Source: Bacteroidales bacterium (GTDB lineage Bacteria; Bacteroidota; Bacteroidia; Bacteroidales; VadinHA17). From it: a stretch of 48,605 nucleotides of DNA. Positions 6,279-37,380 of this stretch are shown here, piece after piece. The stretch spans positions 1 to 48,605 of the forward strand of contig JANYIW010000083.1 of the NCBI GenBank assembly GCA_025358645.1, read 5' to 3'. Position 1 is the first letter of the stretch; every line of letters starts with the position of its first letter. The position numbers and the translations under genes are program-made. The notes below the pieces were generated by a model. That model ran no database searches. It was not told where the DNA came from and saw only the letters and a program-made list of their open reading frames with translations.

Positions 6279-7915
6279 CTAATATTACTTAATGAAAAAA
6301 TTTCGTCTTCATGATTTTTACCCCCTTTCTTATTTCCCCCAAGGGGGAAAAGATTTTGAACTACTCCTTCCCCCGTGGGGGAAGGTTGGGAAGGGGGTAA
6401 TAAAAATAAGAAAGGATCGCCCGAGTTATATGCAGAATTCTGAAATGTTATCTCTTTTTGTTTAAGAAGGGTCTTCAGCAAAGCAGGTTTAGCTGTATTA
6501 AGTACTGGCTGAGGAAACAGACCGAGCCAGAGAATCGCAATGACCAATGATGCCGAGATTGCTTTTTCACGGAGTGTCAGATCATTCATCTTCCAGTCAG
6601 TATTTTTATTTCCGAGAAAGACCTTCTGAACAATCCTGAGAGAATATATTGTTGCAGCTATCAGTCCCAGACTTGCAAGACAGGACATCAGTATATTTGC
6701 TTTAAAAGCTCCGATCAGAATAAGAAGTTCCGCTATAAAATTCCCTAATCCGGGTAATCCCAGTGATGCCATGGAAAAAACGAGTCCTATAGCGCCCATT
6801 ACGGGAGCTTTTTCCCATAGCCCTCCCATTTTAGTAATATCCCTTGTATGAATACGTTCGTAAAGCTGACCAACAAGTATAAACAGTGCACCAGTACTTA
6901 TTCCGTGTGCAATCATCTGAATAACAACCCCCTGGTAAGCAATTTCATTAAATGAAAAAACACCGAGTATTACGAATCCCATGTGGCTGACACTTGTATA
7001 AGCGACGAGCCGTTTCAGGTCGGTTTGAGCAAATGCAAGCTTGGCACCATAAAGGATTCCAATTACCCCAAGCAACATTCCAAAAGGAGCAAACGATACT
7101 GAGGCCGATGGAAATAATGGAACAATAAACCGGAGAAGTCCATACGCTCCTGTTTTTAAAAGTAATGCGGCAAGGATGAGACTTCCTGCGGTGGGTGCTT
7201 CGGTATGTGCATCCGGCAACCAGTTGTGTAAAGGCACCACAGGCAGTTTTACAAGAAATGCAGCCAGGAACCCAAGCATTATCAGGAATGCAGTTGAAGA
7301 GGGCATCTCTGTCCCAAGTAGTTGCAGATAATCGAATGTATATAACCCGGTTGATCGTCCGTGGATAAAATATAAAGTAATTATCGCAATAAACATGAGC
7401 AGTCCGCTCGCCTGTGTATAGAGAAAGAATTTATTCGAAGCAGCAGTCCTGTTTTCATGGCCCCAGATACCAATCAGGAAATACATTGGCACCAACATCA
7501 GTTCCCAGAAGAAATAGAAAAGGAAGAGGTCCAGCGAAAGAAATACACCAGTTATCCCTGCTAAAATCAAAAGAAGATTGAAATGAAAGAATCCGACTTT
7601 TGATCCTATCTCTTTCCACGAAATTATAACAGAAATTATACCAAGGAAGAAAGTCAGAATGAGCATAACCAGACTCAGTCCGTCAAGTGCAAGGTGCAAG
7701 CTTATACCGAACTGAGGAATCCATTCAAGCTTAATATCAATCAGCCAGTCTTTATCCGAAGGAGTTGATTGTAAAACATATATAATAATAATAATAAGAT
7801 CTGAGAGCAAAGCTACAAGCGAAATAATACGAGGCAGGGCAGAGTTTCGTTTTCCTGTAATCCAGGCAAGAAATGCTCCTGCTAATAATATAACTATAAG
7901 ATAAATAAGTATCAT
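6275..7915 (-). CDS. nuoM: NADH-quinone oxidoreductase subunit M, with a repeat-derived insertion in its C-terminus
   Basis: ELMLVPMYFLIGIWG, VPLHNWLPDAHTEAPTAGS; C-terminal LLPPSQPSPTGEGVVQNLFPLGGNKKGGK is encoded by the element at 6319-6399. Confidence 0.95.
   Translation of the reverse strand: MILIYLIVILLAGAFLAWITGKRNSALPRIISLVALLSDLIIIIIYVLQSTPSDKDWLIDIKLEWIPQFGISLHLALDGLSLVMLILTFFLGIISVIISWKEIGSKVGFFHFNLLLILAGITGVFLSLDLFLFYFFWELMLVPMYFLIGIWGHENRTAASNKFFLYTQASGLLMFIAIITLYFIHGRSTGLYTFDYLQLLGTEMPSSTAFLIMLGFLAAFLVKLPVVPLHNWLPDAHTEAPTAGSLILAALLLKTGAYGLLRFIVPLFPSASVSFAPFGMLLGVIGILYGAKLAFAQTDLKRLVAYTSVSHMGFVILGVFSFNEIAYQGVVIQMIAHGISTGALFILVGQLYERIHTRDITKMGGLWEKAPVMGAIGLVFSMASLGLPGLGNFIAELLILIGAFKANILMSCLASLGLIAATIYSLRIVQKVFLGNKNTDWKMNDLTLREKAISASLVIAILWLGLFPQPVLNTAKPALLKTLLKQKEITFQNSAYNSGDPFLFLLPPSQPSPTGEGVVQNLFPLGGNKKGGKNHEDEIFSLSNIR
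6319..6399. repeat. Full-length 81-bp MITE/REP-like palindromic element: TACCCCCTTTC...TTTCCCCCAAGGGGGAAA...CCTTCCCCCGTGGGGGAAGG...GGGAAGGGGGTA
   Basis: Imperfect terminal inverted repeats TACCCCCTT/AAGGGGGTA and two internal hairpins; lies inside nuoM. Confidence 0.9.
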
Positions 7916-9789
7916 TTACTAAGCAGGTAAGTTAATATTATCGTAATTCCAATAACAAATGACAGCAAATACCATCGCATTTTTCCGTTTTGAGTAGTAC
8001 TGAGCATCCGGTTGAATAAAAGAACCAGGCGGGATAATCCAATATTCCAAAGGTCAAAAAAATCGTCTTTATCGATAACAGAAAGCCAGACTATTGGTTT
8101 CACAAGCAGAGTATCATAAAGTTTGTCAAAGCCCCATCCTTTTTCAAAGAATTTGTTTATCCGGCTGTGGCTGTAAGGTGAAGACAGAGCCGGTTTTTTA
8201 TAGTAAATTAAATATGCGATATAGATTCCGGCCAGTACTATTATAGCTGAGAGTGCCTGAAACAGTAATTCCCTGCCTTCTCCGTTATTAACAACAATTA
8301 CTGGTAAAGTATTGTCAACAAGATTTGAGAAAAGATGAATATTACCAATTGATGAGGGCAGTTCTACAAATCCTCCTACAAGAGATAATACTGCAAGAAT
8401 GATTAAAGGAACTGTCATTAGTTTTCCCGGAAGAAAGGATGGTTGGGTTTTAGCTTCACCATAGAAGGTAACAAATATCATTCTGAATGAATAAAGTGCG
8501 GTTAACAATGCTCCGATAATCCCTGCCAGCCATAATATTATACTTCCGGTTTGCGATGAAAATGAATACCATAATATCTGGTCCTTGCTATAGAATCCAG
8601 CCGTTATAAGCGGTAGTGCAGAAAGTGAAGCAGAACCAATCAAAAAAGTATAAAATACAACCGGCATTTTCTTTCTCAGTCCGCCCATCTTAAAAATGTC
8701 ATGTTCTTCATCCAGAACTAATATCACGACACCTGCACCAAGAAAAAGCAGGGCTTTGAAAAAAGCATGTATCATAAAATGGAATACAGCGGCTGACCAT
8801 GCTCCTACACCAAGAGCAAGAAACATATAGCCTATCTGACTGATTGTGGAATAAGCAAGAATTCTTTTCAGGTCATGTTGCGCCAGAGCGCTGAACCCTG
8901 CAATCAGCAAAGTCAGTGCTCCTATAATCGCAATTGCAGACTGAACAACCGGAGCAAGACTGAATAACACATGAGTTCGGGCAATGAGGTAAACACCGGC
9001 GGTAACCATTGTTGCGGCGTGTATAAGAGCGCTTACCGGCGATGGACCGGCCATTGCATCAGGAAGCCAGGTTTGTAAAGGCAGCTGGGCCGACTTACCC
9101 AATGCTCCACCAAGCAATAATGCTGCTGTCAGTACTGCAATTGAAGATCCTGGAACCCACTTTGCAGATGCCTGTTGCATTAATTCGTTTATATTGACTG
9201 TGCCAAAATTCAGGAACAGGATGAAAATACCTATTATCATTGCCGTATCCCCGATTCGTGTAATGATAAATGCTTTCCTGGCTGCATAACCGTTTTGGGG
9301 TTCTTTATACCAGAAGCCTATCAACAGGTAACTGCATAGACCCACACCCTCCCATCCAAGGTACATAAGTAAAATATTGTCGGCAAGGACAAGTACGAGC
9401 ATTGAGCCAATAAAGAGATTCATATAGGCAAAGAACCTGGTGAAACCTTCATCTTTTGCCATGAATTCTATCGAGTACAGGTGTATCAGAAAGCCTACGA
9501 AAGTGATGACAAAGCAGAAAACCAACGACAGGGAGTCGAGGCTGAAAGATATATCAACCTTCAGATTACCGGCATTTATCCATTCCCATACATTAATTGA
9601 ATATGATTTGACTTCAGGCAATGATTTAAAAAAACTGATAGCCAGAATAAATGTTAGTACTGCAATGATGCCTATTGATCCGGCGCCGATAAAACCCGCA
9701 ATTTTCCGGCTCAGTTTATGGCCAAACAGTGCCAGTATGAGAAAGCTCAGAAAAGGGATTGCAGGTATGAGGGCAATAATAGTTGTCAT
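7912..9789 (-). CDS. nuoL: NADH-quinone oxidoreductase subunit L
   Basis: FLGWEGVGLCSYLLIGFWY, LPLQTWLPDAMAGPSPVSALIHAATMVTAGVYL. Confidence 0.97.
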   Translation of the reverse strand: MTTIIALIPAIPFLSFLILALFGHKLSRKIAGFIGAGSIGIIAVLTFILAISFFKSLPEVKSYSINVWEWINAGNLKVDISFSLDSLSLVFCFVITFVGFLIHLYSIEFMAKDEGFTRFFAYMNLFIGSMLVLVLADNILLMYLGWEGVGLCSYLLIGFWYKEPQNGYAARKAFIITRIGDTAMIIGIFILFLNFGTVNINELMQQASAKWVPGSSIAVLTAALLLGGALGKSAQLPLQTWLPDAMAGPSPVSALIHAATMVTAGVYLIARTHVLFSLAPVVQSAIAIIGALTLLIAGFSALAQHDLKRILAYSTISQIGYMFLALGVGAWSAAVFHFMIHAFFKALLFLGAGVVILVLDEEHDIFKMGGLRKKMPVVFYTFLIGSASLSALPLITAGFYSKDQILWYSFSSQTGSIILWLAGIIGALLTALYSFRMIFVTFYGEAKTQPSFLPGKLMTVPLIILAVLSLVGGFVELPSSIGNIHLFSNLVDNTLPVIVVNNGEGRELLFQALSAIIVLAGIYIAYLIYYKKPALSSPYSHSRINKFFEKGWGFDKLYDTLLVKPIVWLSVIDKDDFFDLWNIGLSRLVLLFNRMLSTTQNGKMRWYLLSFVIGITIILTYLLSK

Positions 9790-35721: not shown

Positions 35722-35816
35722 TCTCCATAATATTTAATGAACTCACCTCTATCCCCTCTCTGCTTCGTAACTACCCTTTATACACATCTACTTGTCGTAA
35801 GATATTTAGATTAATT

Positions 35817-35915
35817 AGCTGCTCTGAAAGAGCCAAATATGAATAACCCCCGGCGCCAGCCGGGGGTGGAACAGTCACCAATCTTCAACAGCTCTGAAGG
35901 AGCTGAATATAATAG
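35817..35915. repeat. Bacteroidota-type intergenic palindromic repeat: two GCTCTGAArGAGCyrAATAT units around a 22-bp hairpin ACCCCCGGC-GCCA-GCCGGGGGT
   Basis: Perfect 9-bp arms at 35846-35867; direct repeat units at about 35821 and 35891. Confidence 0.85.
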
Positions 35916-36005
35916 TGATGGAAAAAACTTCTCATCTGGTGTAATACCTAAAGACCTAATCAATTGACAAAGTGATATGATACACATTATTTTTAATAAA
36001 AATGC

Positions 36006-36035
36006 TTGCTAATTGAAAAATCTATTCTACATTTG
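36006..36035 (+). promoter_or_regulatory. Candidate Bacteroidota promoter TTG-N19-TACATTTG
   Basis: TTG at 36006-36008, TAnnTTTG at 36028-36035, 19-nt spacer; directly precedes the candidate ncRNA. Confidence 0.55.
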
Positions 36036-36041
36036 CAGTAA

Positions 36042-36097
36042 TAATACCTGCCACGCTTCCCATTTGAACAGCGCACCCGGGCGGGTTTTCGCTTTTT
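36042..36097 (+). ncRNA. Candidate small structured RNA upstream of the Abi gene (abiF-RNA-motif-like)
   Basis: 7-bp stem ACCTGCC(36046-36052)/GGCGGGT(36080-36086), nested ACGC/GCGC pairing, then TTTTCGCTTTTT; promoter-like boxes just upstream. Confidence 0.6.
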
Positions 36098-36135
36098 ATA
36101 GACTTGTCATATTAACTTATAATATCCGTTAATTT

Positions 36136-37035
36136 ATGCGATATTCCAAGCCCCCAGTATCACTAGAAAAGCAGTTAGCCTGCTTAAAAGATCGTGGGCT
36201 TAAAATTACGGATGAAGGCTCAGCCCTAGTTTATCTTTCTAACATTAGTTATTATAGGCTAAGGGCATATACCTACCCATTTCAAGACAATACTGCTGAA
36301 GACCATCCTTTTATAATACCAGTTTCATTTGAGGAAATTATCAACCTTTACAAATTCGACAGAAAATTAAGCCATCTGGTTTTCGGAGCTTTAGAGAAAA
36401 TTGAAATTGCCTTGAGGACTCAAATTATTTATCAATGGGCGATGAATAATGGTAGTCACTGGCAAATTAACCCTGCTTTATACCGAGATCTGGTTCGCTT
36501 TGCCGGACAGAGAGCTTCTCTTCAAGCTGAAATTGATCGAAGTAACGAAACGTTTATTGAGCATTATAAAACAAAATATTCAACTCCCTCTGAACCTCCT
36601 TCATGGATGAGTCTTGAAGTAACCAGCTTTGGTTTATTATCACAAATATTTCAAAACTTAAAAAAAGGACCTGAAAAGATAGCAGTAGCGAAACATTTTG
36701 GACTTAATGATATTAGTCTCCTTGAAAATTGGATGCATTGTTTTAGCAATATCCGTAATATTTGCGCTCATCATAGCAGACTATGGAATCGGAGGCTTAC
36801 TACACATATTAAATTGCCCTCCCGTCCATCCTACTCATTTATTAATAACTTAAGCGTATACCCATACAAGGTTTATGCAACTTTTTGTTGTATGCAATAT
36901 ATCCTGAATATCGTTGACTCAGGGAATGGATTTAAGTCAGAACTTAAAGAATTAATGACCGGGTGTCCTTTAGCCCAAGAAAAAGAAATGGGTTTTCCTT
37001 CCAACTGGGAGGTAGAAGATTTCTGGAAAGATTGA
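36136..37035 (+). CDS. Abi family protein (Abi_2; AbiD/AbiF-like, HEPN-type)
   Basis: KPPVSLEKQLACLKDRGLKI...YLSNISYYRLRAYTYPFQD...FDRKLSHLVFGALEKIEIALRTQIIY...NIRNICAHHSRLWNR (RNxxxHxxR-like). Confidence 0.92.
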   Translation: MRYSKPPVSLEKQLACLKDRGLKITDEGSALVYLSNISYYRLRAYTYPFQDNTAEDHPFIIPVSFEEIINLYKFDRKLSHLVFGALEKIEIALRTQIIYQWAMNNGSHWQINPALYRDLVRFAGQRASLQAEIDRSNETFIEHYKTKYSTPSEPPSWMSLEVTSFGLLSQIFQNLKKGPEKIAVAKHFGLNDISLLENWMHCFSNIRNICAHHSRLWNRRLTTHIKLPSRPSYSFINNLSVYPYKVYATFCCMQYILNIVDSGNGFKSELKELMTGCPLAQEKEMGFPSNWEVEDFWKD

Positions 37036-37055
37036 CGATAATGACTATTGTTTAA

Positions 37056-37328
37056 ATTATTGGCAATGAATACTTTTCGTACTTACATGATCCTCTGACA
37101 TTTATATACCAGGTTAAAGATATTGGTCCCCTTATTAAACCAAATTATTTGGAATGTACTCCATTAATTCTTTCCCCATCTAGAACTGAGATATTATATG
37201 CTCAACCGCTCCGGGACTTTTGGTGGGATATTCAACGCGCCGGTAGCTTATGTCTTTCAGTGGGGGTGATAGGATATTCTCTTCCAAGTCATGATTTTTA
37301 TGCTAGGCAGGCATTATATAGTGTTTAG
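37056..37328 (+). pseudogene. C-terminal remnant of a SIR2-like-domain protein
   Basis: Stop-to-stop frame without a start: IIGNEYFSYLHDPLTFIYQVKDIGPLIKPNYLECTPLILSPSRTEILYAQPLRDFWWDIQRAGSLCLSVGVIGYSLPSHDFYARQALYSV*; VIGYSLPxxD is typical of SIR2-like C-termini. Confidence 0.65.
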
Positions 37329-37380
37329 GCTTCGTAAAAAGAAGTTGAGTACCTTTAATTCGGACAACCAGCAACAATTA

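What the first reader, a model, noticed from the sequence alone, without database searches (positions are those of the whole stretch)
36006..37035. Abi_2/AbiF-like gene with a short structured RNA and its own promoter: candidate RNA-regulated toxin module
Upstream of the Abi ORF are TTG-N19-TACATTTG, then about 55 nt that can fold (ACCTGCC/GGCGGGT 7 bp with a nested ACGC/GCGC and a possible pseudoknot through the CCC loop), ending in TTTTCGCTTTTT. Established (from memory): a conserved abiF RNA motif has been reported next to Abi_2/abiF genes, and AbiF-type HEPN proteins have been linked to RNA-dependent toxin-antitoxin behaviour and Cas13 origins. The Abi ORF keeps an RNxxxHxxR-like HEPN motif (RNICAHHSRLWNR).
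Basis: partly seen in the sequence, partly recalled or inferred. Interest (0 to 1): 0.7.

Follow-up and report, generated by a model that had tools for sequence, protein, structure and literature searches.

The report
AbiF toxin with RNA antitoxin
This is a complete, compact copy of a known bacterial self-poisoning defence module, an RNA-cutting protein held in check by a small folded RNA encoded just in front of it; the RNA is of a type the public RNA library misses, and look-alikes of it occur without the toxin gene in many phages.

Summary
ORF 36136-37035 is a full-length AbiF (Abi_2) protein. Its only close solved relative is PbAbiF bound to its ncRNA (8vz6; sequence E 3e-54, predicted-fold TM 0.91), and the catalytic pair is kept (R207/H212 = PbAbiF R210/H215). 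The upstream hairpin 36046-36086 matches Rfam abiF over its whole length but below the curated cut-off (25.1 vs 37 bits). A covariance model from 11 relatives settles it: it finds the hairpin on the coding strand just upstream of 83 of 86 further Abi_2 genes from several phyla, including the proven RNA antitoxin of Clostridioides phage phiC2. Ten of 11 pairs show compensatory changes. A Bacteroidota promoter lies 18-19 nt before the hairpin and a T-run follows. The pseudoknot is unsupported. The module is a ~1.6 kb accessory insertion between hydF and an MBOAT gene, absent there in all 27 same-genus loci holding both genes. Best reading: an AbiF/AbiFr toxin-antitoxin defence module, the RNA being antitoxin and, by inference, leaky terminator. 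New member of a known kind. Side finding: orphan abiF RNAs, some in tRNA arrays or behind a T7-type promoter, recur in phages and may be anti-AbiF decoys.

The parts
36006..36035 (+). Bacteroidota-type promoter TTG-N19-TACATTTG driving the RNA and, by read-through, abiF
   Evidence: Sequence; TAnnTTTG within 30 nt upstream of the hairpin in 79 of 115 places, mostly at -18/-19, background 1.8%
36046..36086 (+). abiF-type antitoxin RNA (AbiFr): outer helix 36046-36052/36080-36086, inner helix 36054-36057/36070-36073, loop 36058-36069, 3' internal loop 36074-36079
   Evidence: R1 61.8 bits; Rfam abiF 25.1 bits, below cut-off 37; covariation
36087..36097 (+). T-rich tail; with the hairpin a likely intrinsic terminator and RNA 3' end (inferred)
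   Evidence: At least 7 T in the 14 nt after the hairpin in 110 of 115 places
36136..37035 (+). abiF: Abi_2 HEPN ribonuclease toxin, 299 aa
   Evidence: PF07751, PADLOC AbiD, 8vz6 by sequence and by predicted fold
36754..36771 (+). Codons of the HEPN catalytic motif R207-N-I-C-A-H212
   Evidence: Invariant R, N and H in 18 homologues; aligns with PbAbiF R210/H215; coordinates
35774..37375 (.). Approximate extent of the accessory insertion between hydF and the MBOAT gene
   Evidence: Sister genome G017 aligns to both flanks and holds only a few bases between them

Best explanation
An AbiF/AbiFr toxin-antitoxin defence module (type III-like, RNA antitoxin). One promoter at 36006-36035 makes a short RNA of about 50 nt that is essentially the hairpin 36046-36086 plus its T-tail. 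Most transcripts are expected to end there, because hairpin and T-tail also form an intrinsic terminator; occasional read-through makes the abiF mRNA. AbiF is a homodimeric HEPN ribonuclease whose R207/H212 sites would cut single-stranded RNA. Each monomer is held inactive by one bound hairpin RNA. When infection upsets the supply of the RNA or the complex, free AbiF would arrest the cell and stop the phage. Shown here: protein family, fold, catalytic residues, RNA structure by covariation, its fixed place in front of the gene, conservation of promoter and T-tail, and the accessory insertion. Inferred from characterised relatives: toxicity, dimerisation, neutralisation by binding, premature termination, phage defence and its trigger.
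For: Pfam/PADLOC/PDB matches, predicted fold against 8vz6 TM 0.91, invariant R207/H212. R1 hits 83 of 86 further Abi_2 loci, all on the coding strand just upstream of the gene, and coincides with Rfam abiF on the experimentally shown antitoxin region of phage phiC2 (function in PMC12373285). Compensatory changes in 10 of 11 pairs. Promoter and T-tail conserved. The gap from hairpin to gene has a median of 33.5 nt, leaving little room for a second promoter. Accessory insertion.
Against: Rfam abiF does not reach its gathering score on the window. Single-sequence folding energy is not remarkable. No expression, toxicity or phage data exist for this copy. C. difficile RCd22 has two motifs and a separate terminator, this locus one motif and no separate terminator, so details of regulation may differ. 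The consensus terminator scan did not flag the hairpin (its loop is longer than that scan allows).
Confidence: 0.82

Rival explanations
1. The hairpin is only a cis-acting leader terminator/attenuator that limits abiF transcription and has no trans antitoxin role.
For: T-run directly after the hairpin in 110 of 115 places; in C. difficile deletion of RCd22 raised abiF expression 17-fold (PMC12373285).
Against: Loop and internal loop are conserved in sequence, which a terminator does not need. RCd22 neutralises AbiF in trans by direct binding (PMC12373285). Orphan copies in phages keep the motif without an abi gene, some without a T-run.
Confidence: 0.08
2. The module is a decayed or toxin-only relic: an Abi_2 pseudogene or inactive protein with a leftover leader.
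For: Accessory insertion present in one genome only at this site.
Against: Intact 299-aa frame, complete Abi_2 domain, catalytic residues kept, RNA fully paired at 61.8 bits, promoter intact.
Confidence: 0.04
3. The RNA is a guide-like RNA and AbiF an RNA-guided nuclease, as in Cas13.
For: Cas13 HEPN domains are thought to descend from AbiF (PMC12373285, PMC12737573).
Against: No repeat array in the region, one hairpin copy in the genome with a conserved loop and no variable spacer-like stretch, one HEPN motif in 299 aa. Published AbiF is described as an RNA-antitoxin system rather than a guided one (PMC12737573).
Confidence: 0.02

Closest known systems
PbAbiF/AbiFr of a Prevotellaceae bacterium (PDB 8vz6; Zilberzwige-Tal et al. 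Cell 2025, read only through PMC12373285 and PMC12737573)
   Same: Full-length protein homology (E 3e-54), same fold (TM 0.91), catalytic R/H aligned; one RNA per monomer in the solved complex, one RNA motif here.
   Different: About 33% identical protein; the RNA chain of 8vz6 could not be compared with the tools here.
C. difficile AbiF/RCd22 (prophage phi027, phages phiC2 and CD2301; PMC12373285)
   Same: Abi_2 protein with the RNxxxH motif; abiF-type RNA upstream on the same transcript; the phiC2 RNA is hit by both R1 and Rfam abiF.
   Different: About 28% identical protein; RCd22 has two motifs and a separate terminator, the window one motif whose own T-tail is the only terminator candidate; the window copy is chromosomal, not in a recognisable prophage.
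Rfam RF03085 abiF RNA
   Same: Same two helices, asymmetric 3' internal loop and full-length alignment.
   Different: Longer loop, CACCCG internal loop, 25.1 bits against a cut-off of 37.
ToxIN/AbiQ-type type III toxin-antitoxin systems
   Same: Works alike: ribonuclease toxin, RNA antitoxin encoded upstream, read-through expression (literature).
   Different: ToxN fold, repeat array and pseudoknot RNA in ToxIN; none of these is present here.

Membership tests
AbiF/AbiFr RNA-antitoxin system | Abi_2 domain protein of about 300 aa | tested here: met
   PF07751 E 3.1e-57, residues 33-218; PADLOC AbiD E 7.7e-72
AbiF/AbiFr RNA-antitoxin system | HEPN catalytic motif R-polar-xxx-H | tested here: met
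   R207-N-I-C-A-H212, invariant R, N and H in 18 homologues and aligned to PbAbiF R210/H215
AbiF/AbiFr RNA-antitoxin system | Same fold as PbAbiF | tested here: met
   AlphaFold2 model pLDDT 94.4, TM 0.91 to 8vz6
AbiF/AbiFr RNA-antitoxin system | Structured ncRNA upstream on the same strand, homologous to abiF RNA | tested here: met
   R1 61.8 bits, one hit in the genome; R1 and Rfam abiF hit the same place in phiC2; covariation
AbiF/AbiFr RNA-antitoxin system | Toxicity of the protein, neutralised by the RNA | not testable with these tools
   Needs expression in a laboratory strain
Rfam RF03085 at its curated threshold | Score of at least 37 bits | tested here: not met
   25.1 bits; so the RNA is filed as a divergent homologue of abiF RNA, not as a member called by Rfam
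ToxIN-like type III toxin-antitoxin | ToxN/AbiQ-type toxin fold | tested here: not met
   The only fold match below E 0.001 is PbAbiF
ToxIN-like type III toxin-antitoxin | Tandem repeat array of the antitoxin RNA | tested here: not met
   One hairpin only; no direct repeats
Cas13 (type VI CRISPR-Cas) | Two HEPN domains and a CRISPR array | tested here: not met
   299 aa with one HEPN motif; no repeats in the region

The most novel reading that the evidence does not exclude
The RNA half of this module has been taken up alone by many phages as an anti-AbiF decoy antitoxin. In IMG/VR, 38 of 41 viral places with the motif and at least 300 nt of downstream sequence have no recognisable Abi_2 gene there. 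Several copies sit inside phage tRNA arrays. T7-like Aeromonas phages carry one just behind a T7-type promoter in the leader of the scaffold gene, with two compensatory pair changes between phages. If true, these are natural RNA counter-defence genes against AbiF, parallel to the phage PhiTE pseudo-ToxI (PMC3475682).
Probability: 0.5. Interest if true: 0.75.

Novelty: new member of a known kind. Interest (0 to 1): 0.42.

Why it matters
The locus is a clean, minimal AbiF/AbiFr module (promoter, one hairpin, one gene) of the lineage from which Cas13 is thought to have evolved. It shows that the public RNA model misses many AbiF antitoxins of Bacteroidia and Alphaproteobacteria: on 20 test loci the model made here found 20 and Rfam at its cut-off four. 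The new model gives a direct way to find them, and it led to orphan abiF RNAs in phages, which makes RNA-based counter-defence against AbiF a testable question.

Tried and rejected
Rfam at gathering on the window and on 9 homologous loci gave nothing, and an E-value search on 7 of those found no abiF match, so a model was built instead. Single-sequence folding gave no signal for the window. The pseudoknot idea was dropped: in an all-against-all covariation scan the top pairs are the two helices, and no loop-to-GGG pairing covaries. A first scan of genome contigs with the single protein found nothing; the alignment-based scan worked. The window-type RNA has no blastn match in named phages, and the phage-type RNA none in E. 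coli genomes. Guide-RNA function and a pure attenuator were considered and rated low. MAFFT on all subtypes together misaligned one subtype's 3' arm by a base, so the model was built on the matching subtypes only.

Full report
Observation. The inner helix is CGCT/AGCG (36054-36057 with 36070-36073), one base off from what was written.

Protein. The 299-aa product is Abi_2 over residues 33-218, AbiD in PADLOC over its whole length, and its only relative among solved structures is 8vz6, PbAbiF bound to ncRNA (E 3.3e-54). An AlphaFold2 model from 18 homologues (pLDDT 94.4) matches 8vz6 with TM 0.91 and nothing else below E 0.001. R207 and H212 align with PbAbiF R210 and H215, whose double mutant is inactive according to PMC12373285, and they are invariant among the homologues.

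RNA. Rfam abiF (RF03085) aligns end to end at 36047-36086 with 25.1 bits, E 0.11 against all 4227 families in 1.7 kb, below its gathering score of 37. That is neither acceptance nor rejection, so relatives were collected: 9 of 60 related genomes and 30 of 395 genomes of the class hold the gene. Nearly every full-length homologue has the same kind of hairpin in front; the few without one (L037-L040, L047) are remote homologues aligned only over about their first 240 residues. A covariance model, R1, was made from 11 of the hairpins.

Test on other loci. R1 was run over 86 further loci: 80 named genome contigs fetched by protein similarity, five plasmids and phage phiC2. It hit 83 of them, all on the coding strand, with only two extra hits in half a megabase, both additional copies upstream of an abi gene. 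One of the three loci without a hit (L094) has no upstream sequence. The gap between hairpin and gene has a median of 33.5 nt. R1 hits phiC2 (L074) at 678-714, where Rfam abiF hits at 679-714; according to PMC12373285 an RCd22 sequence lies upstream of the abiF gene of phiC2, and RCd22 neutralises AbiF in trans by direct binding. In 20 of these loci Rfam at gathering finds four. Some named contigs may be the same species as unnamed training genomes.

Structure. In the MAFFT alignment, which was not fitted to the structure, 4 of 11 pairs have double changes and 97.5% of cells pair, against 31-42% when the partner is slid. In alignments fitted to the model, 10 of 11 pairs have double changes and no shuffle of 500 reaches the observed values. 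Fitted alignments lean toward the structure, but the slid controls fall to 23-53%. No pseudoknot is supported.

Expression logic. TAnnTTTG starts mostly 18 or 19 nt before the hairpin (79 of 115 places have it within 30 nt, background 1.8%), and the hairpin is followed by at least 7 T in 14 nt in 110 of 115. So the RNA should begin almost at the hairpin, and the hairpin can serve as its own terminator; the gene would be read by read-through. This last step is inference; read-through past an RNA terminator was measured in C. difficile (PMC12373285).

Context. The locus holds the only Abi_2 match and the only R1 hit in the genome. In the sister genome G017 (HydF 97% identical) hydF and the MBOAT gene are about 78 bp apart; here about 1.66 kb. 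All 27 same-genus loci seen to hold both genes lack abiF there. No target-site duplication or mobile gene was recognised. Relatives of the protein are found on 425 plasmid records and 77 phage records.

Known or new. The kind is known: AbiF/AbiFr, an RNA-antitoxin system at the root of Cas13 (PMC12373285, PMC12737573; the primary structure paper and the paper that described abiF RNA were not held). This is a new member with an RNA subtype below the public model's cut-off.

Beyond the window. Exact-pattern scans of viral contigs gave 44 places with an abiF-type RNA. Three have an Abi_2 gene behind it; 38 others with at least 300 nt of downstream sequence do not. R1 scores all 44 at 22-61 bits, and 13 of 17 loci put to Rfam pass its own cut-off. 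Several lie in tRNA arrays, for example 8 nt after a tRNA-Thr in L201. In Aeromonas phages PZL-Ah8, PT2 and T7-Ah the RNA lies behind a T7-like promoter in the leader of the scaffold gene, and two pairs of the outer helix have changed on both sides between phages. No Aeromonas, Salicola or Synechococcus phage appears among the phage records with an Abi_2 match. The S-CREM1 paper (PMC9964418) had already noted one such RNA in a cyanophage, without a counter-defence reading in the passages read here. Phage RNA mimicry of a type III antitoxin has a precedent in PhiTE/ToxIN (PMC3475682, abstract only). The decoy reading is a hypothesis; two literature searches showed no report of it among the papers listed, and most subscription journals are not held.

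Noticed in passing
viral loci L199-L208 and L210-L240 (IMG/VR); L241-L245 (named phages): Orphan abiF-type RNAs in phage contigs without an Abi_2 gene behind them; in L201, L202, L204, L207, L208, L217, L221, L231 and S-CREM1 they sit beside phage tRNA genes, and in T7-like Aeromonas phages behind a T7-type promoter with compensatory changes. Possible anti-AbiF decoy RNAs.
   Followed up: partly
L195 about 8549-8590 and its tandem partner (G224:C23): Two intact abiF-type RNAs in tandem with no Abi_2 gene, placed between a short HTH-like gene and a probable hsdR in what looks like a type I restriction locus.
   Followed up: partly
L192 about 6627-6667 (G111:C17): An intact orphan abiF-type RNA with promoter, no Abi_2 gene, less than 1 kb from what looks like a cas9-cas1-cas2 locus.
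   Followed up: partly
L056 and L059 (G156:C33, G122:C35); L196 (G112:C1): abiF-type RNAs with broken pairs and no Abi_2 gene, and one in front of a degenerate Abi_2 gene: the module seems to be gained and lost.
   Followed up: partly
L028 and L029, upstream of the abi gene: Two different abiF-type hairpins in tandem before one abi gene (a short subtype followed by a longer one), reminiscent of the two motifs of RCd22.
   Followed up: no
window 36054, 36073 and 36077: Across relatives the outermost pair of the inner helix changes together with the fourth base of the 3' internal loop (C-G with C, A-U with A, U-A with U), a possible base triple; confounded by RNA subtype.
   Followed up: partly
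window 35818-35915: REP-like element: a GC-rich palindrome flanked by two similar GCTCTGAA-type repeats, inside the inserted segment; its 36-nt core recurs at two other places in the genome.
   Followed up: no
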